A DNA stretch of 42,901 bases from a virus, in the IMG/VR virus record IMGVR_UViG_3300038466_000104, positions 1 to 42,901 of that record. One strand, 5' to 3'. The notes beneath the pieces are model-generated. The model was given only the letters and a program-made list of their open reading frames with translations, ran no database searches and was not told the DNA's origin. The number at the start of each line of letters is the position of its first letter. The stretch's first letter is position 1. Shown here in pieces: positions 189 to 21,132 of this stretch. The position numbers were made by a program, and so were the translations under genes.

Positions 189-263
189 GGGCGCTTAACT
201 CAGCGGTAGAGTGCCACCTTCACACGGTGGAAGTCACAGGTTCAAATCCTGTAGCGCCCACCA
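189..263 (+). tRNA. tRNA-Val (anticodon CAC)
   Basis: A complete cloverleaf folds by eye. The acceptor GGGCGCT pairs with AGCGCCC, the D stem ACTC with GAGT, the anticodon stem CCACC with GGTGG around loop TTCACAC (anticodon CAC, reading GUG valine codons), and the T stem ACAGG with CCTGT around TTCAAAT. The discriminator is A, and the CCA end is encoded (261-263). The gene lies immediately beside a leftward serine recombinase whose stop codon falls inside it, so its 3' half is the likely integration target and the gene is kept intact after integration. Confidence 0.95.
234..263. other. Putative attachment site (attL) in the tRNA 3' half
   Basis: The recombinase coding sequence ends at 234-236, within the variable loop of tRNA-Val, so its last nine or so codons are the antisense of the T arm and acceptor. 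A recombinase reading directly into a tRNA 3' end is the usual configuration at an integrated element's int-proximal boundary. The crossover cannot be placed without attR or an empty site. Serine recombinases often need only a very short shared core, so the junction could also lie just outside the tRNA. Confidence 0.45.
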
Positions 264-1931
264 TCGGAAAGTCGTCGAACCGGGGCTTCCCTTCACGGGA
301 GGCTCTGGTTCTTGAGTTTTGTGCTCGATCAACACAAGCGCGTCGAGGGTCGACATCGCATGGTAGTATGGCCGCCCCTTCAGGGGGGTGACCGGATCGA
401 GACGAATCTTCCCCAGCAGCTTCCTCAGGAGCAATGCCGCCCGTTCAGTCTTCTGTTCGAGGATCCCCTTGAAGTCGGTCACCCGCTCCAGGATCCACTC
501 CTTCGGCGGAGCCTTGAACCGGCGCTTGTCGCTCATGCGAAGAGCTTCGAGCTCGGTCCCCAACCGGTCGACGTTCTTTTCGCACAAGCCAAGGCTGTCG
601 GCGACCGACTTCAGGTGACCCGCCTTCCCCTCCATGATGAACTTGAGCAGATTGTCCCTCTTGCGCTTCTCATCCGAATGCTCCGCTTCCTTCCGGAGGA
701 TGGTTTCCGGGCTCTTTGCCAGTTCCTTCGCGGTTAGAGTTTCAACACGGCGGAAGAGGTAGCTCAGCGCTTCGGCGTCCGAGATCTTCCCGTATACCGC
801 GCCAAGGATGATCCGTTCCGCAATCGTTTTCCGGACCAAGGTCCGGTTTCCACATGATCTCCTCGCCGCGTTGAGACACCCGTAATACCCCCTGTCCTTT
901 CCGCTGACCTTGGCGATGGTACCCCCGCAGACCCCGCACGTCATCGCGGAGGACAACAGTTCCTGAGGGTATATGGCCTTTGCATTACCCTTCTGTCCAT
1001 GAAACCCACGCCGCCCCTTGCCCCCCGGCCAGACACGCCTGTTCTCCTCGAGACGTTTCCGGACACGTTCCCAAAGTTCTTGCGGGATGATCCGGAGATC
1101 TTCCCGCGTGATCACGACCCACTCGGATTGCGGTTTTTCGTAGGTCCGGACCTTGCCTGTAATCGGTTCCCGTCGACACCCGCGGCGGTTCCAGACCCAC
1201 TTGCCGATGTACTTCTCATTCCTCACCATCCCGAAAACAGGATTCGTCGCCCATTTCCCGACATTCCCTTTACGGGTCGGAGTTCCGTCCTGATTCAGCC
1301 TCTGAATGATCCTCGTCAGAGAAACTCCATCCGCATATTCCTCGAAAACACACCGGACTACCGCCGCCTCTTGGGGATTGATTTGCATATCATAGCCCTC
1401 GGGGCGTTGCTGGCCTTTCCGATCAACGTAGACTTTGCCGACGGGAAAAGACTTGTATCCGAACGTTCCCTCCCCGACGAAGTAACCGCGCTCTTTGCGG
1501 CCCTTCTGCCCCCGGAGGGTCTTGTCTCGAATGTCGTAGAGCATCATGTGGTTGAACATGCTTTTTGTTGCGACGGGCAGGAAGGACCGTTCGTCCGAGG
1601 TATCGATGTTGTCCGAAACCGACAGGATCGTAAGACCCATGAACTGGAATTGGGAGAAGATCGTCAGCGCTTTGATTTGATTCCTGGAGAGACGTGAAAG
1701 GTCGTCCACCAGGAGAACGTCGAAAGCTCCGTTGTTCGCCGCCTCCATGAGCGTGTTGAGGCCCACCCGGTCATCCCTGGATCCGGAAACGGCGCTGTCG
1801 AAGTAGATCTGATCCTCAAGGACCGTGTAGCCGTGCCGTTCGGCCGCTCGCCGGCAGGCCGCAACCTGATCCTCGATGCTGGTGGGACTCTGAAGATCGG
1901 TGCTGTATCGTGCGTAAATCGCAGCTCTCAT
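234..1931 (-). CDS. Large serine recombinase (phage/ICE integrase)
   Basis: Site-specific recombinase of 565 residues that would integrate and excise the element. The N-terminal resolvase domain carries the catalytic serine in the Y-A-R-Y-S-T context (Ser10), with the LLVDDLSRLSRN helix near residues 80-90. A 'recombinase' domain follows (about 165-290), then a zinc-ribbon-type Cys cluster (CGVCGG ... YGC ... CGN, about 330-365), a charged coiled-coil stretch and the usual YYHA-type end. The ATG at 1931 has a good AGGAG ribosome-binding site; an earlier in-frame start exists at 2078, but its extension is not resolvase-like. The start overlaps the stop of the upstream small ORF (ATGA). The C-terminus runs into antisense tRNA-Val, so the last residues may differ in the excised form. 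Confidence 0.93.
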   Translation of the reverse strand: MRAAIYARYSTDLQSPTSIEDQVAACRRAAERHGYTVLEDQIYFDSAVSGSRDDRVGLNTLMEAANNGAFDVLLVDDLSRLSRNQIKALTIFSQFQFMGLTILSVSDNIDTSDERSFLPVATKSMFNHMMLYDIRDKTLRGQKGRKERGYFVGEGTFGYKSFPVGKVYVDRKGQQRPEGYDMQINPQEAAVVRCVFEEYADGVSLTRIIQRLNQDGTPTRKGNVGKWATNPVFGMVRNEKYIGKWVWNRRGCRREPITGKVRTYEKPQSEWVVITREDLRIIPQELWERVRKRLEENRRVWPGGKGRRGFHGQKGNAKAIYPQELLSSAMTCGVCGGTIAKVSGKDRGYYGCLNAARRSCGNRTLVRKTIAERIILGAVYGKISDAEALSYLFRRVETLTAKELAKSPETILRKEAEHSDEKRKRDNLLKFIMEGKAGHLKSVADSLGLCEKNVDRLGTELEALRMSDKRRFKAPPKEWILERVTDFKGILEQKTERAALLLRKLLGKIRLDPVTPLKGRPYYHAMSTLDALVLIEHKTQEPEPPVKGSPGSTTFRWWALQDLNL

Positions 1932-2137
1932 GAGCGTTCTCCTTTCTGGTCGTTCGCGCTCGCATACTGCAGATATTCGGTGACAAGAATCTCGGCGATC
2001 AGATCCAGAAACTCCCGTAAATACGGATTGTCGGCAGGACACCACACATCGCGTGGTGGTTTCTCTGCCGTCCCGCAAATGTCGTCCGCCGGATCTCCCA
2101 TCACCCGATCTTGCGACCCCGTATCCTTAAAATCCAC
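1928..2137 (-). CDS. Small protein coupled to the recombinase
   Basis: A 69-residue ORF starting with GTG at 2137; an in-frame ATG at 2101 would give 57 residues. Its TGA overlaps the recombinase ATG as ATGA, the classical translational-coupling arrangement. The C-terminal half is an amphipathic helix (REFLDLIAEILVTEYLQ) ending in polar residues. Short helical proteins of this type often precede serine recombinases in mobile elements; I recognise the pattern but know no function. With the promoter proposed at 2180-2210 the leader would be about 35 nt. No clear Shine-Dalgarno sequence is visible for the GTG, so the start is uncertain. Confidence 0.6.
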   Translation of the reverse strand: MDFKDTGSQDRVMGDPADDICGTAEKPPRDVWCPADNPYLREFLDLIAEILVTEYLQYASANDQKGERS

Positions 2138-4147: not shown

Positions 4148-5265
4148 CCTGGGCCAAATTTCACGTCGAGAGCGAGAAGATTGCGAGCGCGGCGGAGCTT
4201 GCCGTCAATCACGGGGACGTGGCCGTCGGCCGCGAGCTCTACCTGAAAGCCGCTGAGGCGGAAATGCGTGCGATTGAGGCGCTCGATGTGAAGAAGGCCC
4301 GGACCCTGGGCGTAACCGCCGTCAGCGCCGTCGCCCTGTGGTACAAGGCTCACGAGTTCGCCCAAGCGGAACGCCTCGCTCACAAATGGCTCGCCACCGA
4401 TTTGCTTCCCGCCTTTGCCGTCGAGCAGCTTCAGATGCTCCTTCAAATGATGTGGAACGATATTGTCCGGGAGAGGGCCGGCGTCAAGTTCACCGGCGGA
4501 GAGGTCCTCGTCTCCGTCAAGGGCGGCGAGACGGTGGCCGGCGGCGCCCCCCTGGAGCTGATCGTGCGCAAGGTCGAGGAGGTGCGCAACATCTTCTACC
4601 GCACGGCCGAGATGCTCGTCGCCATGCCCCATCGGAAACGTGGTCCGGCGAGTGCAGAAATCCAAGAGGCGTTCCGTCCGTGGCTGTTCCAGGCGGCCCC
4701 CGGAAGCTACCAGTTCGCCGTCTGCGTTCAGGAACCGGCCCAACTGAAGCTGTTCCCGAAAGCCAGGATAGAGGCCGCAAAAGTCGCCGCCAAATTCATC
4801 GAGATCGTCAAGGCAAGCATCGAGGATCCGGAAGTGGCGCTCCCCGAGATCGTGCCGGACCCGGACTACCGCAAGACCTTCCTTCGGATGACCCGGAACC
4901 TAGCTCCCACAGGGGAGGATTTCGGCCGCCTTGAGGTACGCCCCAGCACTTCCCCCACGGCGAGGCCGGTCGTATTGCTACCGGCTGCCCGGGAGGCTAT
5001 CGGGCAGACTCTGAAAGGCCAGGCGGTACCTGCGGTGGAGCCAACACAGCACGAAGAGGTTCAACTGACGGGCATCCTACGGGCACTTCATTTGGACAAG
5101 GACTGGATCGAGGTGTCGGCAGAGGGGCAATCCGTCAGGATCACCGGCGCAGGCGATCAGGTCGACGACGTACTCGGGCCGATGGTGAACCGCCGCGTCG
5201 TCGTAGATGCGTACAAGACGAAGACGGGCAAGTTTATCCTGTGCGATATAAGACCCGCAGGGTGA
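4144..5265 (+). CDS. Unrecognised 373-residue helical-repeat protein
   Basis: The N-terminal third (about 1-105) looks like a TPR/helical-repeat region (ELYLKAAEAEMRAIEALD, VSAVALWYKAHEFAQAERLAHKWL). The middle carries LELIVRKVEEVRNIFYRTAEML and a PLFQ/GSYQF-like segment. The last 65 residues form a beta-rich module (TGILRALHLDKDWIEVS ... GKFILCDIRPAG). Proteins of this general build sit in defence and genomic islands, but I know no function. It overlaps the preceding gene by 4 nt and ends 65 nt before the brxA start, in the same direction, so it is probably co-transcribed with the BREX genes. Scaffold or regulator is a guess. Confidence 0.75.
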   Translation: MTWAKFHVESEKIASAAELAVNHGDVAVGRELYLKAAEAEMRAIEALDVKKARTLGVTAVSAVALWYKAHEFAQAERLAHKWLATDLLPAFAVEQLQMLLQMMWNDIVRERAGVKFTGGEVLVSVKGGETVAGGAPLELIVRKVEEVRNIFYRTAEMLVAMPHRKRGPASAEIQEAFRPWLFQAAPGSYQFAVCVQEPAQLKLFPKARIEAAKVAAKFIEIVKASIEDPEVALPEIVPDPDYRKTFLRMTRNLAPTGEDFGRLEVRPSTSPTARPVVLLPAAREAIGQTLKGQAVPAVEPTQHEEVQLTGILRALHLDKDWIEVSAEGQSVRITGAGDQVDDVLGPMVNRRVVVDAYKTKTGKFILCDIRPAG

Positions 5266-5330
5266 AAGAGGCCTTTCCCGTTAACCCCGTCTGTAGAACC
5301 CAGGTCTCAGAGACAGGTCGAGATAAAAAG

Positions 5331-6467
5331 ATGCCAGAATCAGAAAACAAAGGTCATCGGCAACGATTGCGAGACCGCTTCGTGAGCGGCGAGGAAAGCT
5401 CTCATTCTGAAGAGGCCCTGCTCGAGCTTCTGCTGACCTATGCGATCCCGCAGAAGGATGTCCAACCGCTGGCCAAGCGGTTGCTCGCGGAATTCGGCGG
5501 CCTCTCCGGCCTGTTGGTGGCCCCGATGGAAACGCTCTTCCAGTCGGACGGTATCAAGGAAAACAGCGCGGTCCTTCTCAGACTTGTTGGCTGGATTCGA
5601 CAACAGCACACCGATAAACAGCCTGCCAAAGAAGCTCGCAAACCCGCGATCCAGGCGACCCTTTTCGAGGTCATTTCCCCCGAGAAGACGGAGCCACCGG
5701 CCCCCATCAAGGATAAACCCCGGCGCGGCACCGAGATGTTCGGCAAGGCGGTCCTCAAAGAGGCCATTCAGATACTGCCGAGCCTTCCGGATACCGAATC
5801 TCTGGACGAAATACGATCCTTCCTTCGGGCCAAGCTCCATTTCAGCGCTGAACAGACGCGGCATCGTTACGCCAATTACATCACTCGCAGGATGTTCCCG
5901 GACGGTTATGCGGACGGTCCCTTGCGCTCTTTCTCAAAGGTGTTCCCGGAGACCCAGGAACTGCGGGATGTCTGCTTTTACCGTTTCTTGCAGTCTGAAC
6001 CGCTTGAGGTCGAGATCATCGAGGACCTTATCCTGCCCAACCTCGGCACCGGGCGTCTGAGCCGCGAGCGAATTCGAAAGCGCCTCTCGGAGAAATTCCC
6101 CGGCGCGATCAGTATCGTGGATTGCGGAAAGGCCATCGTGGATGCCCTTAGCGCGGCTGGCATCGCCAAGGCCGACAGAACGAAGATCAATTACGCCTAT
6201 CGGGACATACCCGTAGCATCGTTCGCCTTTGTCCTGCACAGCGAATTTCCCGAACCGGGCATGTTCGACATCCGCCAGCTTGAAGAGAACCGCATGATCC
6301 GGGCCATGCTCTGGAATCCGGAGCGGCTCCTTCATTCCCTCTACGAGTTGCGCAACCGGGGGCTCATCAGCAAGGTCTCGGAGATCGACAGTACTCGCCA
6401 GTTCACGACAAAGCACACGCTCGCCGGAGTCGTCGGGCAGATCGTCTCCGGAGGGAACAAGGCATGA
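5331..6467 (+). CDS. brxA: RadC N-terminal domain fused to BrxA (DUF1819)
   Basis: A 378-residue two-domain protein. Residues about 8-92 match the N-terminal helix-hairpin-helix part of RadC/UPF0758 proteins (HRQRLRDRF, EEALLELLLTYAIPQKDVQPLAKRLL, GLSGLLVAPMETLF). The RadC catalytic JAB/MPN domain is absent. After a proline-rich linker (about 93-135), residues about 136-378 resemble BrxA, a small DNA-binding BREX protein (AKLHFSAEQTRHRYANYITRRMF, LEVEIIEDLILPNL, ENRMIRAMLWNPERLLHSLYELRNRGLI). BrxA proteins are usually about 200-250 residues without this fusion. The ATG at 5331 directly precedes the RadC-like start; an alternative start at 5241 would overlap the previous gene. The stop overlaps the brxB start (ATGA). 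Confidence 0.8.
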   Translation: MPESENKGHRQRLRDRFVSGEESSHSEEALLELLLTYAIPQKDVQPLAKRLLAEFGGLSGLLVAPMETLFQSDGIKENSAVLLRLVGWIRQQHTDKQPAKEARKPAIQATLFEVISPEKTEPPAPIKDKPRRGTEMFGKAVLKEAIQILPSLPDTESLDEIRSFLRAKLHFSAEQTRHRYANYITRRMFPDGYADGPLRSFSKVFPETQELRDVCFYRFLQSEPLEVEIIEDLILPNLGTGRLSRERIRKRLSEKFPGAISIVDCGKAIVDALSAAGIAKADRTKINYAYRDIPVASFAFVLHSEFPEPGMFDIRQLEENRMIRAMLWNPERLLHSLYELRNRGLISKVSEIDSTRQFTTKHTLAGVVGQIVSGGNKA

Positions 6468-6988
6468 AGTCCACCGAGATCATCGAAGCCCTTCGTCAAA
6501 AGCTCACGGTGCCCGGCGGGCGGCACCTGTACGGCGTTCTGGGTACCTACCGCCAGCTCGACGGCTTCGTCAATAAACTGCATCAGGCCAAGACCACGGG
6601 GGGTGACCCCTTCTCCAAACCCGTCAACGTGAACCGGGGCATCCTGGACGCTATTCCGGATGACGAGTTCAAGCAGCTCGCTGAAAACGAAGCCAAGCGG
6701 CCCGAACCCACGGCAGCGCACGTAGCCAGGGCCTTCGAGCGGTTCCTGCGCGCGAACCTCACCGGCAAGGGTATTCTGGTTCTTTCAAATCTGGAGATGC
6801 TCTTTGCCTATCATATCGAGCTGAACCTGCTTCGGACCATGGCGGCGGACGAGGACCGCGTGCTGCTCCTGCTGCCGGGCCGGCGGTCGCGCGGCCGGAT
6901 AACCATGTTCCACGAAATGGAGAAGGGGGACTACACGTTGCCCACGAACCTGATTGCCGAGAACCATCTTTGGGAGATTAGGGAATAG
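6464..6988 (+). CDS. brxB: BrxB-like (DUF1788-like) BREX protein
   Basis: A 174-residue protein coupled by ATGA overlap to brxA and only 2 nt from the methyltransferase. The C-terminal half has the pattern expected of BrxB/BrxF small BREX proteins: GKGILVLSNLEMLFAYHI, VLLLLPGRRSRGRITMFHEME, LIAENHLWEI. I see no intact Walker A in the N-terminal half (LYGVLGTYRQLDGF), which argues against the P-loop protein BrxF of type 3 systems. BrxB is essential in E. coli type 1 BREX with an unclear role, probably as a partner of BrxC and PglZ. Position after brxA supports BrxB. Confidence 0.7.
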   Translation: MKSTEIIEALRQKLTVPGGRHLYGVLGTYRQLDGFVNKLHQAKTTGGDPFSKPVNVNRGILDAIPDDEFKQLAENEAKRPEPTAAHVARAFERFLRANLTGKGILVLSNLEMLFAYHIELNLLRTMAADEDRVLLLLPGRRSRGRITMFHEMEKGDYTLPTNLIAENHLWEIRE

Positions 6989-6990
6989 CC

Positions 6991-9519
6991 ATGTCCAAGA
7001 AGCAAGATTCACAATTGGGCAGCATCTTCAAGAAGGACACCCCCAAGATGCCGAAGGGCTACTATTCCGGCGATAAACCAAACCCGAACCTGCGGGCGTT
7101 CGTGGAGCAGCACCGCAAGGAGTCGCCTTACGACCCGGAAAGCGACGACTACGAACTCCACGCGTTCGATAAAGCAATCACTACGAGCAAAGATAACGCT
7201 GTTTACGGAATACATGGTTATTGGGCCAAGAAACCCTATGATGCGATTCGTCAGTACGTCACCCATTTCACGAAACCAGGAGATCTTGTATTAGACCCCT
7301 TCTGTGGGTCAGGAACAACAGCAATCGCGGCAAATGCAGAAGGCAGACAGTGCATTGCGATTGACCTAAGTGGCGCAGCCACCTTCATTACAAGGCATGT
7401 TTCTTATCCTACTTCTCAAGAAAGAGTAGTGGAACTTCTAAGGCTTCTAAGGGCTCAAATCGACCGGGACATATTGCCACTGTATACGACCACTTGTGAG
7501 CGGTGCGGATCAAGCGCTGAAATCGCTTTCACTGTTTGGTCGTACACCTACCGTTGCTTGAAATGCCTATCAGTGTTCCCTATTTACGATGCGACGAGTA
7601 ACCGCGAATGTCCCAACTGTGGCGATAAACTGGCCGCTCGATCACATCATGTTGGGGTGGTTCCAGTCGAGACCGGATACGATTGCAGCGGCAATTGTCG
7701 CCCAAGACGACAAAGGCGAGCACATAACGATCTTGGGCGCTCAGGAAAAGGGGGCTTTGAGCTATTCGATTTACCACTTATCGAACGAATCGAAAGGGAG
7801 CCGATTAGAGACTGGTTTCCAACTGCGGAATTCTCAGACAAATGGATTTCTTATAGACCGAACCTGGGAGAAGCGAAAACTATTGCTGGCTTTTTCACAA
7901 AACGTAACTTGAGAGCGTGTGCAGCAATAATGCGAGGGATTGACTCTATTGAGAAAGCAGGAAATTCAGACGCGGATGTACTTAGGTTTTGTTTTACGGC
8001 GGCGCTGTTAAACTTTTCAAGAAAGGCACAGCACTTAGAAGAGGGAGGAGGATACATACCTGGCAATTATAATTTCCCTCCTATGACAAAAGAGAGAAAT
8101 GTTCTAATGTCATTTGAGTCCGTAGCCTTAAAAGTGGCTAAAGGGATGGATGCGATTGTTGCTATAAGAAATCCTCGTTCCATCACTCTGCTATCGACAC
8201 AGTCAGCCCTCGATTTAACTGATATCCAAGCAAATAGCATAGATTATATATTCACTGATCCACCATATTCGAACAAAGTTCCTTTTGGTGAATTTAACTT
8301 TCTGTACGAAGCCTGGCTGGGAATGTCGTTGTCTTGGAAATCACCGGATGAGCTAATACAGAACGAAAAACTCGGGAAGCCCGCTTCACGTTGGTCAGAC
8401 ATGATGGCACAGGCTGCCTTAGAAATGTACCGAGTTCTGAAGCCGGGGCGTTGGGTATCTGTTTGCTATCACGACGCGGCAGAAGGTTCCTGGGAAATGC
8501 TTCAAGATGCTTTTACCGTCGCAGGATTTGTCCCGGATGACAATGCAAGGGCCATATCTATCGAAGTTCGAAACAAATCGTTCAAACAACGAACCACAAC
8601 AAATGTCCAAAAACGTGACTTAGTCATCAATTTCCGAAAACCTCGTGCGGGCGAAGCTGCTGGAGATGTTTCGATTACTGGTAAGGAGGACTCGCGTACT
8701 TTTAGAGAGAAGGTGCTGACCATTATTATGGACTTCTTGGAAAGCCATCCCGGTACAACAAAAGACAGGATATTTGATGAAGTCGTGAGCCGCATGGTCC
8801 GCAGCGGCCAGATGGAAGCGCACGACTTCGATGAACTCCTCCGCACCGTGGCTGAGGAAATAAAAACTCCGGTCAAGAAGGACCTTTTCCGGAACGAGGA
8901 CCCGAATCTTTTCGGCAATCACGAGGTCGGGAGATGGTACCTCAAGGAAACTGAACTCGCGGTGGCGGATGCAGCTGAAAACGCCAGAGAGGACGCGTCC
9001 GCCGAGAAACTCGGGGTATTCATAAGGGGGCATCTCAAGAAACACCCGGCAGACGAAGGTGTCCATTACAGCGATCTTTTCGAGCACTACATCTACGCGG
9101 TGAAGGACAAACCGCGGCGTCAAATGGTCGAGTTTCTGCCGGATTATTTCTTCAAAACCGAGCAAGGCACCTGGCGGCTTCCTGCCTCCGCGGAGGAGGA
9201 GCGAGCCAAGCGCGAGGCCCGAGTCAAGGGGCTGGGCCGACGGGTTAAACGCTATATCACTCAGCTTGAGCAGGGCGCAATAATTGCCGATAACGAGCGG
9301 CCAAACGACGCCACACTGGCCGAGTGGATACGCCACTGCAAGCGGGCCGGGCTCTATGAACAGGGCAAGCTCCTGTACGAGAAGGGCGGGCTCAACCCCG
9401 ATAGCCTGCCCGAGGAGGCCATGGTCAGCGTCGAGGAAGATTACCAGGTTTGCGCACGCATGCTAAGCCGAAACGTAGAAGCGGATTCGGGTGAGAAGCG
9501 CAAACGGAAGAAAGCGTAA
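6991..9519 (+). CDS. BREX-associated DNA methyltransferase (non-PglX type)
   Basis: An 842-residue N4/N6 amino-methyltransferase, expected to mark host DNA for the BREX system. Motif X/I lies near the start (HGYWAKKPYDAI, about 74-85; DPFCGSGTT at 102-110). Three CxxC pairs (Cys169/172, 189/192, 207/210) form a zinc-ribbon insert. Motif IV DPPY is at 423-426, followed by VLKPGRWVSVCYHD. Order I-insert-IV and the YWAKKP element recall DUF1156-type enzymes rather than the large PglX of type 1 BREX. Residues 570-842 are a separate winged-helix-like region plus a tail (about 768-826) also found in the next gene. DNA coding for roughly residues 60-600 is strikingly AT-rich compared with the GC-rich ends, suggesting a swapped catalytic core. 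Confidence 0.85.
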   Translation: MSKKQDSQLGSIFKKDTPKMPKGYYSGDKPNPNLRAFVEQHRKESPYDPESDDYELHAFDKAITTSKDNAVYGIHGYWAKKPYDAIRQYVTHFTKPGDLVLDPFCGSGTTAIAANAEGRQCIAIDLSGAATFITRHVSYPTSQERVVELLRLLRAQIDRDILPLYTTTCERCGSSAEIAFTVWSYTYRCLKCLSVFPIYDATSNRECPNCGDKLAARSHHVGVVPVETGYDCSGNCRPRRQRRAHNDLGRSGKGGFELFDLPLIERIEREPIRDWFPTAEFSDKWISYRPNLGEAKTIAGFFTKRNLRACAAIMRGIDSIEKAGNSDADVLRFCFTAALLNFSRKAQHLEEGGGYIPGNYNFPPMTKERNVLMSFESVALKVAKGMDAIVAIRNPRSITLLSTQSALDLTDIQANSIDYIFTDPPYSNKVPFGEFNFLYEAWLGMSLSWKSPDELIQNEKLGKPASRWSDMMAQAALEMYRVLKPGRWVSVCYHDAAEGSWEMLQDAFTVAGFVPDDNARAISIEVRNKSFKQRTTTNVQKRDLVINFRKPRAGEAAGDVSITGKEDSRTFREKVLTIIMDFLESHPGTTKDRIFDEVVSRMVRSGQMEAHDFDELLRTVAEEIKTPVKKDLFRNEDPNLFGNHEVGRWYLKETELAVADAAENAREDASAEKLGVFIRGHLKKHPADEGVHYSDLFEHYIYAVKDKPRRQMVEFLPDYFFKTEQGTWRLPASAEEERAKREARVKGLGRRVKRYITQLEQGAIIADNERPNDATLAEWIRHCKRAGLYEQGKLLYEKGGLNPDSLPEEAMVSVEEDYQVCARMLSRNVEADSGEKRKRKKA

Positions 9520-9524
9520 ACCTT

Positions 9525-10331
9525 ATGTCGAAGTATGACCCATTGACCGAATACCTCCGAGGGGTACCTGGAAGCGAGTGCGAACAATTGTTTTCGCTCG
9601 ACGAGTTGGAGCGCATCCTCGGGACCAGCTTGCCTCGAACGGCTCGAATTGACAGGCCTTGGTGGGCCAATACGAGATCAAGCACACATGCTGTGCGCTG
9701 GCTCGATGCTGGATGGAAAATCGGTAGGGTAGATCTTAGAGGCGGCCGGGTAACGTTTGTGAGGACCGATGGTGATATCGGGGCATCGAAGGTTGTTCGG
9801 AACCGTTACGAGAATCTGCGTCGTTTTTTCAAACGTGTCCCGTCTCAGCAGGAACAAATCGCTCTAACGTTTAAGGAAATAGGTTCGGTTATCGGCGGGA
9901 AATTGCCCGACACAGCATTTCACGACAGGCCATGGTGGGCGAATACGAAATCAAGCCCACAGGGTTCGTCCTGGGTGACGACGGGCTGGAGGGTCGAAAA
10001 GGTCTTTCTGAAGGCCCAGATCGTGACGTTTAGGCGAAAGGGTGACAATCTTCTTATGAGTATCCCACGATACGTCAAGGGTCTCCTTGATGGTTCAGCC
10101 CATATTGGCCGTCCAGCGCCGAGCACGCTAGCGAGTTGGGTGCGGTTCTGTAAACGCGCGGGGTGGTACTTTGAGGGAACAGTCCTGTATGAGCGGGGTG
10201 GCCTGAACACGGATTCGCTTGATGAAAGCGAATGTACCGAGGTGGATGAAGACTATGCCGTCTGTAAGCGTGAACTTAATCGTTGCAAGGACGAGATACC
10301 TTTGATGAGCAAGGGGAACCGCCATGCCTAG
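9525..10331 (+). CDS. Tandem WWAN-domain accessory protein with methyltransferase-like tail
   Basis: A 268-residue protein with three modules. Residues about 4-82 and 95-173 are two copies of one small domain: LxRT/DTA ... RPWWANT (44-50 and 135-141) ... GW(K/R)V(E) ... VTF(V/R)R. This matches the uncharacterised WWaN/'GW...VTFxR' domain that I recall as DUF7662-like. The third module (about 196-252; TLASWVRFCKRAGWY ... VDEDYAVCKREL) is clearly homologous to the tail of the preceding methyltransferase: about 32 of 55 positions are identical by eye. The gene lies 5 nt after the methyltransferase and overlaps the start of brxC by 8 nt. No catalytic motif is seen; a DNA- or partner-binding adaptor is a reasonable inference. 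Confidence 0.8.
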   Translation: MSKYDPLTEYLRGVPGSECEQLFSLDELERILGTSLPRTARIDRPWWANTRSSTHAVRWLDAGWKIGRVDLRGGRVTFVRTDGDIGASKVVRNRYENLRRFFKRVPSQQEQIALTFKEIGSVIGGKLPDTAFHDRPWWANTKSSPQGSSWVTTGWRVEKVFLKAQIVTFRRKGDNLLMSIPRYVKGLLDGSAHIGRPAPSTLASWVRFCKRAGWYFEGTVLYERGGLNTDSLDESECTEVDEDYAVCKRELNRCKDEIPLMSKGNRHA

Positions 10332-13300
10332 TACCGAAGATCTTTTCGCCACCCGGAAGAACTTAAGCGAGATCTGCACGGTCCCGGACAAGATCATTTC
10401 CGTTTATTCGCTGGAAAAGCATGTCTGGGCCGACTCGAACTCCGAGGCCAGCCGCAAGGCCCGCAAGCCTGAGTTGCAGACCGTCGAGGAGTTCCAGATC
10501 GACCCGGTTAGGCCATTCCTCACGGATGTCTTGCGCAATATGGCCGCTCCCTACAAACCAGAGCGCAGAGATAGTCCCATCGGCCAGGGGTACTGGATTC
10601 AGGCCGAGTTTGGGTCCGGTAAATCGCATCTGCTCTGCTGCCTTGCCGCCTTGGCTCTGGGACGCAAGGATGCCTGGGGGATCGTCAAAAAGAAGGAAGA
10701 CGCCTCCGGCCGCGGAAAGCGCGAGTCTCTTTTCCGTTTCTGGGAGGAGGGCCTGGAGGCGAAAAGCAGCAAGGGTACCAAGGGCATCTTTGTCATCGTC
10801 AAAACGCTGGTGGGTGCGGGCAGCGGAACGGTGGGCCTGACCGACAAGGGCCGGCGGCTCTCCGAGTACATCCTGGATGCGGCCAAGGAGCAAATACAGG
10901 TCGAGCTCGGCAAGAACATCTCCTTGTATCCAGTGGAACTGTTGGCCGACCGGTTTATTACCGAAGATCTGGAACGATATCGGAAAGACCTGGCCAAGTT
11001 TCTGCGCGACCCGAAGTTCTTTGACGAGGACGAATTCGAAGAGGTTGACGATTTCATCCGCACCATTCAACAGAACAAAACCCCGGAGTACAAGCGGAGC
11101 TGCGGCAACAAGCTCTGGCGCTTCTACACCGAATACCTGAAGGTTCAGCCTCATATCGCTGCCGAAACCGAGGACATCCTCAAGCACATGACGGAGACCA
11201 TCCTGGATGAGGGGTATAGCGGCGTCCTGCTGGTGTTGGACGAGGTGTCCTTGTTCATGAAGAACCGGGACGAAGATCAGCGGACCGACGACGAGAAGAC
11301 CCTGGTCGTGCTATCGAATCGCCTGGCGAAGATTCACAATCTGCCCGTCTGGACGGTCTGCGCGGCTCAGCAGGCCATCGAGAGCAAGATGGGCGTCAAG
11401 AACATCATCGCCGATGACCGGCTGAAGCTGGTCAAACTGTTGGAGGAGGACAAGGACTACTACGATATCGTTCTCGCCCGCGTGCGGGAGATCAAGGAGC
11501 CGGCGGCCATCAGCAATTATTATCTCCATTACAAGCGGGGATTCACCTGGCCCAACAGCATCGCCGAACAGGATTTCCGCCACTTCTTCCCATTCCACAA
11601 ACCCGCCATCGAGGTCTTGCGGGCGATCACCTACGAACTGACCACGACCCGCTCCGCGATCCATTTCATGCACCAGACCCTCAAACACCAGATCAAGCAG
11701 AAGGGCCGCGAGCTCATCCGCCTGTGGGAGCTGTTTGACGAAGCGGTGCGTTACGAAGAGGACCCGAGCGGTGTCCACGCTGGCCTGGTGGCCATCAAGA
11801 CGAAACGTGAGACGGATTACCGGGCTTACGAAGTGTGCAAGCGCCAGATCGACGGTCTGACAAAAGGCTACCTGAAAGTGCACCGCGACAAGAGCGTCAA
11901 GGTCATCCAGACACTTTTTCTCTATCATATCGCCCGCACCCGCCAGCAGGGCATCACGCCGGAGGAGATCGCCAACTCGGTGCTCATCGAGCGGGATGCA
12001 GACGCCAACCCGGACGAAAACAACCAACATTACGAAACCATTGCCGAAAACCTCAAGAAGGAACTACGGCAGATCGTCCAAGCCTTCGACGAGGAAAAGC
12101 GGGCGAGATACCGGTTTGACCCCGTCTTCACCGGGGTCGACCCAAGGAGTGAGTTCGGCAAAGCCCGCGACGAAGCGGAATCCAATGAGGCCATGCAGAA
12201 AGAAGCATGGGACCATCTTTTGGCGCTCGACGAATGGCCGGTACGCACGCGCCAGATGACCATCGATCTATCCAACGGGGTGCGGTCCACCTTCAGGAAT
12301 ATCGCACCGTTCGTTGCGCCATGGGAGGACCGAGGGGCTGTCCGCTCCGGGGATCAGAGCCTGGATGTGCTATGGCAGGGGCGGCAGATATACGGACGGG
12401 TGGGAATGCGCGATTTCGGGCGAATGGTCTCGGGAAATCAGGTTTTGCCTGCCATTGAAAGCGACCAAACAGACCTTGATTTTGCCGTATACATCGGCAC
12501 GCGCCACGTCGCAGATACCTCTGTGGTTAAGCTGATCGAGCGGCGAAAAGACCCACGAGTCATTCTCTGGACTCCAGCCGAGTTGACTCAAGAGGAACGT
12601 GATCGGCTCATCGAATTCGCCGCCTACCGTAAGCTCATATCCGACTGGCAAGGCAAGGAAACCGAAGATGCCGTCGCGGTGGTCAACTGGGTTTCCAACG
12701 CGCTCCAGTCCGATCTTGCCAAGATCGTGAAGATCGTGGACAACAGTTACGCCCGGGGCCGCCTCGACGCTCTGAACAACTCACAGATGGATTACCGCGT
12801 GGCCGGTGAATTGGCGGCCATCCTTACGCCGCTGGTGGATCGGGTGCTCACGGCCGCATATGAATCCAGAGACATCAAGTTTGATCCGCCGTTCGTATTC
12901 CGCAAGGAAGAGGGTGTCAAGGTCATAAACGGCATCGTCAAGACCGGTCGCATTCCCAAGGGGGCAAAACCCAACCAGAACATCAGTGCGGCCCAGAACT
13001 TCGGCTTCGGCCTGAAAATCATGAAAAAGACCGCCGAAAAGGAACTGGATGTTTCGGGCAATCCCTATGTTAGGAACATGTGGACATTCATAGACGACAA
13101 GTTGGCCGATGGAGGGCAAACCATGAAGGTGGATACCCTCTACAAGAACTTCATGGGTATAGGCGGCCCGAAGGACTATGGACTCACCCGACGCATGGTT
13201 CAACTCTACATGCTCTGCCTGGTCCGGGAAGGACGCTTGCGGGTCACTGTAGGAGCAAAAGCCGGGCTTGCCCATCCCATACTCGATTATTCGAATATCG

Positions 13301-14667
13301 CCGATGTGGAATTCTCGACGAAGGTGTTGGATGCTCTTGGCGAGATTCAGAAGGTGGCCAAGCCTGAAAATTGGGAGGTCCTCCGGCCCTACGCTGAGAG
13401 GCTTCTTGGTATCGAGATTCCTACCAATCAGGATGATACCGTAATCTCCGAACACCGGGCCAGACTGCGGCAGTTCTTTTCCCAGGAGAGGGAATCGTCT
13501 TCCAGGACCGCAAGCCGCGCTCAAAGTCTGTTTGATGCATTGAAAACGGGTAATCCCTATGAAACTGAACTTGGGCAGGCCATAAAATTGTTCTCAACAA
13601 ACATCGAGGGCGGGGATGATATCCATCTTATTCTGCACGCCCTGAAAGAGGCCATGAGCTATCAGGCTTTTGACACGAATAGGGCGACTCCCGCAGAGGT
13701 GGATGATCTTGCCAATCGCCTGAAGAACTACCGTGACATTCGGACTTTCCTCGAATACGAGACTACGATTCGAACAGCCCATGCCTACTGCACCATCACC
13801 CTGGCAGATTTAAGAGAATTAGCCGAGGCTCGAAAGGCTGTCGAGAGCGTTCGAATCAAGCTCCAGAATCTGAAGGAGTACATAGACTCTGATGTCAAGC
13901 TGAAGACGGAACTTGTAGGTCATTTTCCGGCGGTTGAGGGAGAAATGGATACGATAGCGGCAATGATCCGTGAATACTCCTCTGTGTATCTGCCCATGCA
14001 CGAATCCCTCGTGAACAGGATCGATGCCAGCCGCAAGCAGGTTCAGGATACGATCACTGGAAATGACATCAAGGCCCTTGGAGTTCTGGATGGAATCACG
14101 GCGCTGCAACCTGCAAGCACCGATAAAATGGTGGAGAGCCTTACGCAACTTCGCAGTGAGATTTTTGAATGTCCATCGCCTTCACGGGCTTCCGTGGAGG
14201 ATCACCTCCGCAATGGCCCGTTGCATGAATGCGGTTTGTCTTTTGTCAATGCGTTAACCCATGCTCAAGCGGCAGAAAGCGCGGCGGAAAGAGCCAGTAA
14301 AATGATCGACCATGCATTTCGGCGAAAGATGGAGGTGTTTCTGAATCCCGCGGTGCGAGAGCGGCTGGAGCAAGGGAAGAAGGAACCGTCCATCGCCGGA
14401 TTACTGGCGTGCAAGAATAAGGACGAGCTTCGTGGGTATCTCGTCAAAGCGGTACAGGAAACTCCTGGCATTGTGGACATCATCAATCGATATCTTAAAC
14501 GCATCGTTGTAAAACGGGTCAGAATCGCCGATTTCAGACCCAAAATAGGCACCATACAGAAAGACCAGGTGACGAAAGTAGCCGAGGAATTTGGCCAGTT
14601 CCTGGTAACTCAGTATGCCGAAATCGAGGGAGATGAAGACTCCATTCCAATGCTCCAATTGGAATAG
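10324..14667 (+). CDS. brxC: BrxC/PglY-type BREX ATPase
   Basis: A 1447-residue P-loop ATPase. Walker A is AEFGSGKS (94-101) and Walker B is GVLLVLDE (300-307). The long C-terminal region is helical with coiled coils. It matches BrxC/PglY proteins, the large ATPase core common to BREX systems, typically about 1,200 residues; this one is long. It probably couples ATP hydrolysis to target sensing or complex remodelling with PglZ and BrxB. It overlaps the preceding gene by 8 nt and precedes pglZ by 12 nt. The first two thirds are GC-rich and the last third (after about 12950) has more balanced composition, perhaps a second recombination breakpoint. Confidence 0.9.
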   Translation: MPSTEDLFATRKNLSEICTVPDKIISVYSLEKHVWADSNSEASRKARKPELQTVEEFQIDPVRPFLTDVLRNMAAPYKPERRDSPIGQGYWIQAEFGSGKSHLLCCLAALALGRKDAWGIVKKKEDASGRGKRESLFRFWEEGLEAKSSKGTKGIFVIVKTLVGAGSGTVGLTDKGRRLSEYILDAAKEQIQVELGKNISLYPVELLADRFITEDLERYRKDLAKFLRDPKFFDEDEFEEVDDFIRTIQQNKTPEYKRSCGNKLWRFYTEYLKVQPHIAAETEDILKHMTETILDEGYSGVLLVLDEVSLFMKNRDEDQRTDDEKTLVVLSNRLAKIHNLPVWTVCAAQQAIESKMGVKNIIADDRLKLVKLLEEDKDYYDIVLARVREIKEPAAISNYYLHYKRGFTWPNSIAEQDFRHFFPFHKPAIEVLRAITYELTTTRSAIHFMHQTLKHQIKQKGRELIRLWELFDEAVRYEEDPSGVHAGLVAIKTKRETDYRAYEVCKRQIDGLTKGYLKVHRDKSVKVIQTLFLYHIARTRQQGITPEEIANSVLIERDADANPDENNQHYETIAENLKKELRQIVQAFDEEKRARYRFDPVFTGVDPRSEFGKARDEAESNEAMQKEAWDHLLALDEWPVRTRQMTIDLSNGVRSTFRNIAPFVAPWEDRGAVRSGDQSLDVLWQGRQIYGRVGMRDFGRMVSGNQVLPAIESDQTDLDFAVYIGTRHVADTSVVKLIERRKDPRVILWTPAELTQEERDRLIEFAAYRKLISDWQGKETEDAVAVVNWVSNALQSDLAKIVKIVDNSYARGRLDALNNSQMDYRVAGELAAILTPLVDRVLTAAYESRDIKFDPPFVFRKEEGVKVINGIVKTGRIPKGAKPNQNISAAQNFGFGLKIMKKTAEKELDVSGNPYVRNMWTFIDDKLADGGQTMKVDTLYKNFMGIGGPKDYGLTRRMVQLYMLCLVREGRLRVTVGAKAGLAHPILDYSNIADVEFSTKVLDALGEIQKVAKPENWEVLRPYAERLLGIEIPTNQDDTVISEHRARLRQFFSQERESSSRTASRAQSLFDALKTGNPYETELGQAIKLFSTNIEGGDDIHLILHALKEAMSYQAFDTNRATPAEVDDLANRLKNYRDIRTFLEYETTIRTAHAYCTITLADLRELAEARKAVESVRIKLQNLKEYIDSDVKLKTELVGHFPAVEGEMDTIAAMIREYSSVYLPMHESLVNRIDASRKQVQDTITGNDIKALGVLDGITALQPASTDKMVESLTQLRSEIFECPSPSRASVEDHLRNGPLHECGLSFVNALTHAQAAESAAERASKMIDHAFRRKMEVFLNPAVRERLEQGKKEPSIAGLLACKNKDELRGYLVKAVQETPGIVDIINRYLKRIVVKRVRIADFRPKIGTIQKDQVTKVAEEFGQFLVTQYAEIEGDEDSIPMLQLE

Positions 14668-14679
14668 GAAGGCGAGTCG

Positions 14680-17589
14680 ATGCTTTCGAGCTGGGTACTT
14701 GAGAAGCTGCAGGCGCTGAAGGATGAGCAGGTCCTGCTCGTCCAGGATTCGCTTCGGCTTCTTCCTGAAGCGGGCGGTGCCGTCCACCGGTTCGCCAATG
14801 AGAGCGGATTTACAGTGATTATCGCATCCACAAATCTCGTCTTCAGGGAGCTCTTTGAAAAGGCAACCGCTTCCAAGGAGACAAAGAAGCTTCTTCTCGT
14901 TGACCGCGCCCCGGCTCGAAGGAGAGCTCACGCCTCGCTGACCAAAGCCCCCCCACCTTTCTATCCTGATCTTATTACCAGGGCCCCTGAGACGGCCCGG
15001 ATCGATATCAGTCTGCGGCAGTTTCTCATTGAAAAGACAGGGGACCCAAACTGGCCTCAAGAGTCCAATGATCCACGGTTCGCGCGGCTGATTACCGGCT
15101 GCATGGAAGCTGTTCTCAAAGCACATGCAAGCCTGCGCGCGGCGCATCCGACTCGGTTTACCGATCGCGATTTCAAGACGATTGTTGCCTATTCGGCGTT
15201 GGGCGTTCCCGAGGCCGCCTTTAAGCGACCAGAACCAAGAAGCTACTGGCGCATCGGTCTTATCGGATATCCGGCGCTTGAAGAACTTGTTTCGCTTGCA
15301 CCGGAAGTCGCGCATTCCATCCGCGACGAACTGCGCGGCGCCCCAGCTCCCTTTTGCTGGTTCGCGGACTCGCCGCCGGAACTGATCGTCAGGGCCTTCT
15401 ATCTCTCAGCGATACTGGTCCAGCACGTCGATCATTGGAAACTCCTACTCAGCAGCATTGATCCGGACCTCAAGGCCTTCAGTAAGATGGAGACCGCCCT
15501 GATTCGCAAAGCCGCTCCTGAACTCGTTTCAATTGATCCTGTCCGGGCTCATAGCGACCTCCAGGAGGTCGAGAGCTCATTGACCAAGGAGTCTCTCAAT
15601 CTCATCCTCTTTGACCAGTTGAAAATCGCTGCGAACGGCCGGTTTTCTGAGGTGATCGAAAAAGAGAGGTATTCAACTCTGATCCGATCCTTGGCGCTAT
15701 TGGTGGCGTTGGATAGCCTCCTTTCCGACGCCCCCCCCATTGCTTCCCATGAAAAAGTCACCCGTGTGCTTTTTGCAGAACAGGATGACAAGAAAGACCT
15801 GTTTATCGAACAACGGCCTTCGCCGGCGTGGGAAAATCTGAAAGCGGCATATCGGCTGGTACGATCAATCCGAGACATTCGGGACGGTTTGGATGTTGCC
15901 GTCAAGAACCTCAATGTGAAAACAACGTCAGAGTTGTCATTTGAGTGGTTTCGGTCCCTATGGAATGATCGACGTGTCAACCGTCTGGAATACTACCTGT
16001 CGGCTCTCGAACGCCTGGTCTATAGCGTCGACTTCCTCCCCCGTCCTGCAAATAAATTGCCACCCGCTTTCTTGAGCGCATTGGATCGTATTCGAGAACG
16101 CACCAGCACGCTGCGTGACGACACACAGAAGGTACTCGCGAGCGTAAATGCCCGGTACCAGCTACTGGTTGCAGCGAAGTACAAATCATGGATCACCGAG
16201 GATTCCTCGGAAATACGGTTAACAAGCCAGTTCCTGCGGCGCTGTGTTAAACCACATTGGGACCCCCAGAGCGAGAAGGCAGTGGTTTTTGTTTTCGACG
16301 GTATGAGATACGACATCTGGGACGAGCTGGTGCGGCCGATCTTTGAGGATCGTATGGAGATAATCGCTGATTACCCAGCCACGTCTCTCCTGCCGTCAGA
16401 GACGCATATCAGCAGAAAAGCAATATTTGCGGGTTTGTTTCCAGATTCTTTCGACACTCGAAGTGGCGAAGATGCTTTGCTCAAAGGAGCCATGAAGCGA
16501 GAATTCGGCTATGAGGGCGATGTCAACGTTGTTGCCCCCGATGGTATGGGAACAGGCGAGACCGTCCGGTACCGAGCAAGTAACATTGAGTTCTTCATAT
16601 TCGAACTATGTGACAAGGAGCTCCACAAGATACCGGTCAAGGCGCTGCCCGACGGCCGTTTCGTTCCGGGACGCCCTCTCGCCTTCATTTATCAGCAGCA
16701 TATCAAAAACATTATTGATACCGAGGTCATGGCCATAATCCGCGAACTACCACCGGATACGAAGGTGTTTGTTGTCGCCGACCATGGATTTGGCGCCATC
16801 GGTCGCGAGCGCATCCGGGTGGAAATGTCATGGCTGAATGAGCCGACAGACTGCTTTTATCTCAACGCATGGCTCAGGCAGGCATTGGGGGACGCTGGCG
16901 CACCCCGAAAGGTCCGTGAAAATGTTCTTGAATTTCCGGTCGCTGATCTGCGATTGCCTGATGCTGGTGAGGCCTATGACCGTTCTGCAAACCGGAGTTG
17001 GCAGAAGATATTCGCATCAATCATTTTCCCACGAACGGGTTATGCCTTGGCCAGGCCGAAGGCCAACTTCAGTCCTGACGCCTATTCCCATGGTGGAATA
17101 TCGATCCAGGAAATGCTCGTGCCTATGCTCGCAATGCGAGTGAAAGCTCCGGAAGAGGGTCTGCTTGTGCTTGGGCCGATTGCAGGACCCTCGGAACTGA
17201 TTGAGGGTGAAGAGGCGGATTTCCGGATGCCGGTTCAACTCACGCAATCCCACAAGAACAGGGAGATTCGGGTTGAAGCGCAAGCGGTCTATCAGAACAA
17301 AGAAGGGACAGCGCCGATACCCCATCAGGTTCAATTCGTGTCAGCTGCGGGAGGGGAAATCGTTTTTCGATTCATCCCAGACGCAGCCGACACTTCCGAT
17401 GAAGAACGTAAAACCGGCATCATGGAGAGAATGTTAAGAATCAGCGTCACTTACCGTGAGGCACAGCGCATGGTGAGAAAAGCACGGACAATCAAATTTA
17501 CCATGCGACTAAATTCCGAAAAGGTCGTTCGCAGGGTACCAGCCCATTTGGGAAAAATACTGGGTCTGACCCCAAGGAGCATGAAGTGA
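14680..17589 (+). CDS. pglZ: PglZ alkaline-phosphatase-superfamily BREX protein
   Basis: A 969-residue protein with the PglZ core in its second half. Metal-site motifs of the alkaline-phosphatase/sulfatase fold are visible: VFDGMRYD (538-545, with Asp540 as metal ligand), a [17 protein letters not shown] segment, VVADHGFG (Asp701, His702) and YSHGGIS (His804). PglZ is the defining, essential BREX protein; its enzymatic role in defence is not settled. The N-terminal half (about 1-510) is helical and unassigned. It follows brxC by 12 nt and precedes brxL in the order seen in type 1 and type 4 systems. All key metal residues appear intact. Confidence 0.92.
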
Positions 17590-17692
17590 GGCCGCAGTGC
17601 AGGACGTTAACCCAATTAAATGTGGCCATCTTTTGGAAGCCACAGTCCAATCTGGTCCAGGCTGTTCTTGGGTCGCGAGTGGAGAACTGTGG

Positions 17693-19735
17693 ATGAATCT
17701 GAAACTGAAAGAAGTATTCAAAGGCAAGGTCGTCAATAAAGCTCATACGATCAACACCGGTGTTGACGAATTTCCTCGTTACGTCCTCGAATACCTGATT
17801 GATAACTATTGTTCTGAGGAAACCTTCCACGAGGACATGGAGAAGGTCGTCCGGCGGCTTAAGGAGACCTTCGTCTACGGAGCGGAAGCTGAGAAAATCA
17901 GACACTATATCCGTGAAAACCGTAGCCATTCAGTGATCGCAAGCCTGGAAGCCCGGTTGGTTGAAACGGAGGACAAATACTGGGGCACCATTTCAGCGAT
18001 CAACGAAAATTTTGTGAACATACCAGAAAACATAATTAGCCAATACCCGATGCTCCTTTCCGGAGGGATGTGGGGCACCATCGACCTGACCTACGACGAA
18101 ACCGAGATACATAACAAGAAAATCAGGCCCTTCAAAATCACTGCATTCACGCCCTTTCAAGTCAGCATCATTAACTTGGACGAGTTCATAGAGCGACGAA
18201 AAGAATTCTCTACGGACGAATGGATTGATGTCTTGGTAAATTCCTGTGGCCTCGATCCTTCGGGAATGACTCGGCGTCAGAAATTACTTTATCTTTGCCG
18301 CTGCATCCCCCTTGTCGAAACGAACGTCAACATGGTGGAACTTGCACCTCGGGAAACCGGCAAGACCTATCTCTATCGCAACATTTCATACTATGCGCAT
18401 GTGCTGTCCGGCGGCAAAGCGACCCCTGCACAGCTTTTCATCAACCTGAATACAGGGAGGATTGGTGAAGTCGGTGTTCGGGACGCCGTTGTTTTTGATG
18501 AAATTGCGAACACCGATTTCACTGATCCCAGGTCCTTCGTAAGCATTATGCAGGGGTACATGCAGGATGCGAAATTTAGTAGAGGGAAGAAGGAAATCCT
18601 TGCCTTTGCGAGCTTGGTATTTGTTGGCAACCTTGACGTCCAAGGCAACCTGCCGCACGAGAAGTATTACCACCTCTTTGAGCCGCTGCCAGACTTCCTG
18701 CAGGTCATAGCCTTCTTGGACCGCATTCATGGCTATTTACCCGGCTGGGAGATTCCAAAACTGGCTCCGAAAAGTTTTTCAAAGGACTATGGATTTATTA
18801 CAGATTATTTTTGCGAGATTATGCATGAGCTGCGGCGGGTGGATTTACTTGGTTCATTGCGCCATCGCTTCGTTGTAGTTGACCATGCAGGAAGAACCCA
18901 CGGCGTCTCCGGCCGGGATCAACGCGCTGTAATGAAAACCACATCAGGCTTGCTGAAACTGATTTGCCCTGACGGGCGAGTTACCGACGAGGAGCTTGCG
19001 GACATATTGAGTTTGTCCTGTGAACTGCGGCAAAGGGTGCGGGACCAGCTCCATCTGATAGCGCCCGGCGAGTACGACCGGATCGTCCTTGGCGCGCTGA
19101 TGAAACCGTCGGGCAAGCAAGTTGTCCCGGAGCTGCCGGACGGCAAACGTGTTCAACGCGTCACGCTCCCCGAGAAGCCTTCTGTCGGTGAGGTTGTAGG
19201 ATTGGCCGTCGAAGGTGATCATGGCTGCATTCTTCGTTTTGAAATGCAGGCAACCAAGGGGTCAGGGCGTATCGTGCCGTTGGGGTCGATTCAGCGTGTC
19301 ATGCGTGAAAGCATCGAAGCGGCGGCTCAGTACATCCGGGCGAAGCACGAAGACCTCGGGATCAGCGCAGAGTGGCGCAATAGTTTTGATGTGGCTGTGT
19401 TGGCGACCTTTATGGGCGTCCCCAAAGAGGGGCCATCCGCCGGCATCACTATCGTTACTGGTATCGTGTCCGCCTTGAAAAAGGTTCCGGTTCGAAACGA
19501 CATCGCTATGACCGGGGAGATTACGATAATGGGCAAGGTTCTCCCTGTGGGCGGTATCCAGCAGAAGGTTCAGGCAGCCTATGATGCTGGCGTCAAAGAA
19601 ATTCTTTTGCCTGCTGATAATCTCAGAGAAGCCGAAGGACTGCCTTCCTATGTGCGCGACAGCATAAAGCTGACTCCGGTAAGTACCATTGATAAGGTGA
19701 TCGAGATATCTTTAGTGTGCGCCAGCACATCTTGA
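17693..19735 (+). CDS. brxL: BrxL, Lon-like AAA+ BREX protein
   Basis: A 680-residue protein starting at the ATG at 17693 (GGAG upstream); a GTG at 17597 would add 32 unlike residues. Walker A is the variant APRETGKT (218-225) and Walker B is AVVFDE. The C-terminal domain is a Lon-type S16 protease fold with the Ser-Lys pair apparently intact: PKEGPSAG with Ser582 and GGIQQKV with Lys625. BrxL is found in type 1 and type 4 BREX; the E. coli protein forms DNA-binding hexameric rings. The length matches the family. It is the last gene of the operon. Downstream (19736-19787) I see no clear hairpin terminator before the convergent phage gene. Confidence 0.93.
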
Positions 19736-19787
19736 AGAGGGTTTTAGAAGGCTCTGATCAAGTTATCCCCCGGACCTTGCGTCAGAC

Positions 19788-20009: not shown

Positions 20010-20151
20010 GCCTCTCTGATGATCGGTGTGGTCATACTCGTTGACAATATGACTATTGATTTCATTGGTAAATTATCCGTATTTCGTGTCTTGGATTGTC
20101 ACTGGACCGAAGTAGATGGAAGAACCCACAACCTGATGCTATCATCCGGGC

Positions 20152-20742: not shown

Positions 20743-20748
20743 TACTCT

Positions 20749-21090: not shown

Positions 21091-21132
21091 TGCTATATTC
21101 TCCGATCGAGTTATTTCACGGTTTCTGTAGCG

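What the first reader, a model, noticed from the sequence alone, without database searches (positions are those of the whole stretch)
6991..9519. Swapped catalytic core in the BREX methyltransferase
The first ~190 bp and the last ~730 bp of the gene are GC-rich like the rest of the operon (for example line 9181-9240 is about 75% GC), while about 7180-8790 is AT-rich (8221-8280 about 32% GC). The low-GC block contains exactly the methyltransferase motifs. This looks like replacement of the modification module in an existing gene, as in specificity switching of restriction systems.
Basis: seen in the sequence. Interest (0 to 1): 0.7.

Follow-up and report, generated by a model that had tools for sequence, protein, structure and literature searches.

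The report
Mosaic BREX methyltransferase with exchanged core
A virus-borne bacterial defence gene that marks DNA as "self" has had its entire enzyme-and-recognition core replaced by a foreign one, while both ends, which follow the rest of the defence operon, stayed put; this is a natural way to change which DNA the system protects.

Summary
Confirmed and strengthened. The 842-aa methyltransferase at 6991-9519 is a BrxXI/PglXI-type enzyme in a phage-borne BREX operon. GC at third codon positions (GC3) is 0.81 | 0.41 | 0.70, with best breakpoints at nt 7168 and 8782; the core is the lowest-GC3 stretch of its size in the window (next 0.563). Relatives show a true swap. Against three sister operons (BrxF 87-93%, BrxC 83-88%), the gene's ends are 69-82% identical but its core only 41-44%. 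Against a methyltransferase from another phage's more distant operon, the core is 70% and the ends 34% and 59%. Segment trees conflict strongly (AU tests); breakpoints fall at aa 61-64 and 536-563, the edges of the predicted SAM-methyltransferase domain with its nested target-recognition insert. Core exchange recurs in the family, while the C-terminal tail tracks BrxC (Spearman 0.91). Best reading: modular replacement of the catalytic-plus-specificity cassette on a conserved N/C chassis; the specificity change itself is inferred. Also found: the operon combines Type-3 markers with BrxL and no Snf2 helicase; a neighbouring DUF7662 protein carries the same tail domain; two related operons hold two methyltransferases with homogenised ends. 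New variant of a known kind.

The parts
6991..7167 (+). N-terminal segment of the methyltransferase (aa 1-59), resident part
   Evidence: GC3 0.81; 69-73% identical to sister operons L039/L005/L040, 34% to L006b
7168..7182 (+). left seam: composition breakpoint nt 7168; phylogenetic breakpoint aa 61-64
7168..8781 (+). exchanged core (aa 60-597): SAM-dependent methyltransferase domain with nested target-recognition insert
   Evidence: GC3 0.41; 70% identical to L006b core, 41-44% to sister operons; structural matches to SAM methyltransferases span model residues ~58-554
7294..7320 (+). SAM-binding motif DPFCGSGTT (aa 102-110)
   Evidence: sequence; Pfam N6_N4_Mtase
7486..8190 (+). insert between SAM motif and DPPY (aa 166-400): putative target-recognition domain with cysteines (C169, C172, C189, C192, C207, C210) of zinc-finger type
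   Evidence: cysteines invariant in 8 relatives; 28-33% identical to sister operons, 72% to L006b; BrxXI architecture in PMC12839542
8257..8268 (+). catalytic motif DPPY (aa 423-426)
   Evidence: sequence; invariant in 8 relatives
8596..8782 (+). right seam zone: phylogenetic breakpoint aa 536-563 (nt 8596-8679), low-confidence linker aa 558-569, GC3 breakpoint nt 8782
8782..9519 (+). C-terminal tail (aa 598-842), resident part; HTH-type region
   Evidence: GC3 0.70; 81-82% identical to sister operons, 59% to L006b; mainly helical in model
9525..10331 (+). two DUF7662 domains plus a copy of the last methyltransferase tail domain (tail copy at 10056-10283)
   Evidence: Pfam DUF7662; 51% identical to methyltransferase aa 750-827; alignment
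5241..6467 (+). helix-hairpin-helix protein with weak BrxA similarity; conserved first gene of the BREX operon
   Evidence: UPF0758_N 8e-6; HHH_2 1.5e-5 and BrxA 0.043 in relatives
6464..6988 (+). BrxF-like protein
   Evidence: PADLOC BrxF best 3e-4, in 2 of 6 family members; 87-93% identical to sister operons
10324..14667 (+). BrxC
   Evidence: Pfam BrxC_BrxD 5e-5, PADLOC BrxC 4e-6
14680..17589 (+). PglZ
   Evidence: Pfam PglZ 2e-8
17597..19735 (+). BrxL with Lon_C domain
   Evidence: Pfam BrxL_ATPase 8e-113, BrxL_N, Lon_C
234..2078 (-). large serine recombinase at the left end of the phage record
   Evidence: Pfam Resolvase, Recombinase, Zn_ribbon_recom

Best explanation
The gene is a mosaic BrxXI-type BREX adenine methyltransferase. 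An ancestral methyltransferase of this operon kept its N-terminal ~60 and C-terminal ~245 residues, while recombination in or near conserved stretches replaced everything between, the whole SAM-methyltransferase domain with its nested target-recognition insert, by the corresponding core of another methyltransferase lineage (the one now seen in L006b) from an AT-richer donor. SHOWN: mosaic structure, seam positions, recurrence in relatives, ends following the operon. INFERRED: homologous recombination as the route, that the new core methylates and directs defence to a different DNA motif, and that the ends act as the chassis that fits the enzyme to its BrxC/PglZ partners, so that replacing the cassette retargets the system without breaking the complex.
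For: Breakpoints in GC3. Segment identities conflict: W to sister operons N 69-73, core 41-44, C 81-82%; W to L006b N 34, core 70, C 59%; sister-operon partners stay high all along BrxF, BrxC, PglZ. Three-sequence tests: gain 94-101 against a shuffle maximum of about 13, breakpoints aa 61-64 (53-63 with L005) and 536-563. AU tests reject a common tree both ways. Domain edges match: structural matches to SAM methyltransferases mostly run from residue 58-82 to 550-558, with a low-confidence linker at 558-569. Recurrence: C-tail identity tracks BrxC identity (rho 0.91) but core parts do not (-0.17, -0.09, 0.03); L039 and L040 in one genome have BrxC 92% but target-recognition inserts 28% identical; L006a/L006b in one operon have 94% identical tails on 47% identical cores.
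Against: No methylome or activity data. The donor is not found: the W-L006b core is 70% in protein but only 34-35% at third positions, so L006 is a distant relative of the donor, not the donor. All eight family members have lower GC3 in the core than in the tail, so part of the composition step may be a property of circulating cores. The two estimates of the right seam differ (nt 8596-8679 by phylogeny, 8782 by GC3). Only eight full-length sequences from six operons.
Confidence: 0.87

Rival explanations
1. The ends, not the core, were replaced: an L006b-type methyltransferase had its two ends overwritten by gene conversion from a resident partner gene in a two-methyltransferase operon, and the second gene was then lost.
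For: L006a/L006b tails are 94% identical and L004a/L004b aa 60-165 are 99% identical within one operon, so homogenisation between the two gene copies does occur.
Against: W sits in the first position directly after brxF like its sisters, and its ends share GC3 (0.70-0.81) with the brxA-like and brxF genes (0.71-0.79), whereas the core is the foreign part. It needs two conversions plus a gene loss. The end product would be the same mosaic.
Confidence: 0.1
2. No recombination: the core diverged fast under diversifying selection for new targets, and the low GC is an intrinsic feature of the core.
For: Cores have lower GC3 than tails in all eight family members; target-recognition domains evolve fast.
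Against: The W core is 70% identical, motifs included, to L006b, whose operon is otherwise more distant (BrxC 63%, PglZ 48%) than the sisters; AU tests reject it. Fast divergence cannot create shared similarity to a distant lineage.
Confidence: 0.02
3. Assembly chimera: reads of two BREX operons joined inside the gene.
For: The window is a virus-record assembly; related operons with conserved ends could be co-assembled.
Against: One open 842-aa frame with seams at domain edges on both sides. The same kind of mosaic is seen independently in other records, including a pair on one 4.8-Mb contig.
Confidence: 0.03

Closest known systems
Type-3 BREX methyltransferase BrxXI/PglXI (PMC12839542; PADLOC PglXI)
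   Same: Short N-terminal segment, methyltransferase domain with a ~250-residue nested target-recognition insert holding cysteines, ~280-residue HTH-type C-terminus; PADLOC PglXI 5e-90
   Different: Operon has BrxL and no Snf2-family helicase in the record; that paper states that BrxL is specific to Types 1 and 4, and its text does not contain the words recombination or swap
Target-recognition-domain exchange in R-M enzymes (Helicobacter domain movement, PMC3983042, PMC3077401; abstracts only)
   Same: Recombination between homologous enzymes moves the specificity-giving part while the rest stays
   Different: Here the whole catalytic domain travels with its nested recognition insert, in a BREX enzyme, leaving terminal chassis parts
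Type-1 BREX PglX/BrxX variation (phase variation; PMC11341690, PMC11842806)
   Same: PglX is the variable component that sets the motif; the recognition domain is the most variable part
   Different: The Type-1 recognition domain lies outside the methyltransferase fold and can vary alone; here the core is exchanged as one block
BREX locus with two methyltransferases (Lacticaseibacillus paracasei, PMC10164179)
   Same: L004 and L006 also carry two methyltransferases in one operon
   Different: The shared-tail, different-core pattern was not reported in the passages read; the L. paracasei enzymes are named PglX, not PglXI

Membership tests
BrxXI/PglXI methyltransferase | profile match to PglXI | tested here: met
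   PADLOC PglXI 5e-90, best stretch aa 119-568
BrxXI/PglXI methyltransferase | SAM and DPPY motifs in one methyltransferase fold, split by a ~250-residue insert with zinc-finger cysteines | tested here: met
   motifs aa 102-110 and 423-426; invariant cysteines in the insert; fold spans about 58-554
BrxXI/PglXI methyltransferase | three HTH-like domains at the C-terminus | tested here: inconclusive
   tail mainly helical with a few short strands; not searched alone
Type-3 BREX | BrxC and PglZ present | tested here: met
Type-3 BREX | BrxF (iSTAND) present | tested here: met
   BrxF best 3e-4, in 2 of 6 family members; the window protein itself gave no hit
Type-3 BREX | BrxA homologue present | tested here: inconclusive
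   Pfam BrxA only 0.043, in 2 of 6 relatives
Type-3 BREX | BrxHII Snf2-family helicase (present in 77% of Type-3 systems) | tested here: not met
   no PF00176 match in the window or in L006's record; control genomes rang; records may be fragments
Type-1 BREX | BrxL present | tested here: met
   8e-113; a BrxL in every related operon's record
Type-1 BREX | methyltransferase of PglX/BrxX type | tested here: not met
   best match PglXI; nested-insert architecture
Recombinational exchange of methyltransferase modules | phylogenetic conflict between core and ends | tested here: met
Recombinational exchange of methyltransferase modules | changed methylation motif | not testable with these tools
   no methylome

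The most novel reading that the evidence does not exclude
The tail is a docking tag that lets this BREX complex accept interchangeable DNA-recognition modules: swapped methyltransferase cores, two different methyltransferases per operon, and even a non-methyltransferase protein (tandem DUF7662) carrying the same last tail domain. Phage-borne operons would serve as the exchange pool.
Probability: 0.3. Interest if true: 0.7.

Novelty: new variant of a known kind. Interest (0 to 1): 0.52.

Why it matters
Module exchange is classic for restriction-modification enzymes, but in the BREX papers I read the recorded variation is phase variation and a variable recognition domain. These loci show exchange of the whole catalytic-plus-recognition block among phage-borne and bacterial operons, and nature's seams mark which parts of BrxXI are tied to the rest of the complex. 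That makes the open question of how the methyltransferase engages BrxC/PglZ directly testable with chimeras, and offers a route to retarget BREX.

Tried and rejected
Single-protein scans of viral contigs with W, and with its core alone, found no relative; the alignment scan found L006. Plasmids gave only distant relatives (about 30% identical or less over most of the length) and none for the tail alone; phages gave only partial hits. Wider genome searches found few close members. A first structure run on eight sequences was poor (pLDDT 52), so a 26-sequence alignment was used (pLDDT 79). Fast divergence without recombination and simple compositional bias were rejected on the tree conflict. A protein search of the window with the methyltransferase found no silent copy beyond the DUF7662 tail piece and a separate phage methyltransferase. 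Literature: no paper on DUF7662; no paper found on BrxXI core exchange, in a library that lacks most subscription journals.

Full report
Observation. The gene at 6991-9519 is one open frame of 842 aa. A fit of two breakpoints to third-position GC, with no prior positions, gives nt 7168 and 8782 and levels 0.81 | 0.41 | 0.70; the gain is 40.1 against at most 11.8 in shuffled codon order. Shuffling ignores autocorrelation, so other genes are the better control: all tested lie below it, BrxC closest at 31, with a gradual decline. No other 538-codon stretch in the listed genes falls below 0.563.

What the gene is. PADLOC calls it PglXI (5e-90). It has a SAM motif at aa 102-110, DPPY at 423-426, and between them an insert with conserved cysteines. 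This is the architecture described for Type-3 BrxXI: short N-terminal part, methyltransferase with nested ~250-residue target-recognition insert, HTH-type C-terminus (PMC12839542). The operon is HhH/BrxA-like protein, BrxF-like protein, methyltransferase, DUF7662 protein, BrxC, PglZ, BrxL. It lies in a phage record with a large serine recombinase on its left and capsid, portal and terminase genes on its right.

Relatives. Six operons gave eight full-length methyltransferases: W, L005 (Pseudomonadota MAG), L039 and L040 (two operons on one contig of G725), L004 a and b (Euryarchaeota MAG, two genes in one operon), L006 a and b (another phage record, two genes in one operon; portal and capsid).

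Test of the swap. Partner proteins make L005, L039 and L040 the sisters of W: BrxF 87-93%, BrxC 83-88%, PglZ 81-84%, without a dip anywhere comparable to the methyltransferase core. The methyltransferase ends agree (69-73% and 81-82%), but the core is only 41-44%. To L006b the picture reverses: ends 34% and 59%, core 70%. A three-sequence breakpoint test gives gains of 94-101 against about 13 at most in shuffles, with breakpoints at aa 61-64 (53-63 with L005) and 536-563. Trees: the ends put W with the sisters (95/95) and reject W+L006b (delta lnL 175, p-AU 4e-78); the core puts W with L006b (100/100) and rejects the sister clade (delta lnL 293, p-AU 6e-5). One phylogeny for the whole gene is excluded.

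Domain edges. An AlphaFold2 model from 26 sequences (pLDDT 79) shows a low-confidence linker at 558-569. Structural matches to SAM methyltransferases begin between residues 58 and 82 and end at 550-558 in nearly all rows. The exchanged block is therefore the methyltransferase domain with its insert. The GC seam on the right lies some 35-60 residues further on, next to a stretch conserved in all relatives (VSRMVR), a plausible crossover place; the residues between match neither L006b nor the sisters well, which fits a donor that is not in the set.

Recurrence. Over all pairs, identity of the C-tail follows BrxC identity (rho 0.91), while the three core parts do not (-0.17, -0.09, 0.03); pairs are not independent, so p-values are not used. 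Further cases: L039 and L040 (BrxC 92%) differ in the recognition insert (28%) but much less in the core part before it (81%); L006a and L006b share 94% of the tail and 47% of the core; L004a and L004b share 99% of aa 60-165 and 56% of the insert. So exchange seems to occur at two scales, insert only and whole core; W is a whole-core case.

How it works. Shown: mosaic origin, seams, recurrence, co-variation of the tail with BrxC. From the literature: in Type-1 BREX the methyltransferase sets the motif and needs the other components to methylate, and C-terminal PglX mutations uncouple restriction from methylation, probably through lost contacts (PMC11341690, PMC12707154, PMC13326643). Inferred for this enzyme: the core sets the motif, the ends fit the complex. 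The neighbour at 9525-10331 has two DUF7662 domains and a copy of the last tail domain, which fits the tail being an interaction module; this is a hypothesis.

Relation to known systems. The enzyme is a BrxXI family member. The operon is not cleanly Type 3: it has BrxL, said to be specific to Types 1 and 4, and no Snf2 helicase in either phage record, with BrxL in the records of all related operons. Nor is it Type 1, as the methyltransferase is not of PglX type. I leave it as a Type-3-like operon with BrxL.

Limits. Eight sequences, no methylome, donor unknown, and composition alone is not proof because cores have lower GC3 than tails in all family members.

Noticed in passing
9525-10331; L040:6836-7636; L006:1884-2693: A protein of two DUF7662 domains plus a copy of the last methyltransferase tail domain, encoded between methyltransferase and BrxC in three operons; tblastn gave no DUF7662-gene match in L005, L039 or L004.
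   Followed up: partly
5241-19735: BREX operon that combines BrxXI and BrxF (Type-3 markers) with BrxL and no Snf2 helicase; BrxL is also present in the related operons.
   Followed up: partly
L004:71-2614 and 9944-12520; L006 record (G003) 18772-21204 and 29386-31776: Operons with two methyltransferase genes flanking BrxC-PglZ; parts of the ends homogenised, cores different.
   Followed up: yes
234-42835: Phage record with a large serine recombinase next to the BREX cargo; L006 is also a phage record with BREX after its structural genes.
   Followed up: partly
L039 and L040 (G725 contig 1, about 2.57 Mb apart): One bacterium carries two closely related BREX operons (BrxC 92%) whose target-recognition inserts are only 28% identical.
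   Followed up: yes
42254-42835: Separate phage DNA methyltransferase (N6_N4_Mtase) on the minus strand, probably cut by the end of the record.
   Followed up: no
L005:12569-13400: Between methyltransferase and BrxC two short frames resembling a nucleotidyltransferase/HEPN pair by eye.
   Followed up: no
10324-14667: BrxC GC3 falls along the gene (0.79 to 0.56) without an identity break against sister operons.
   Followed up: partly
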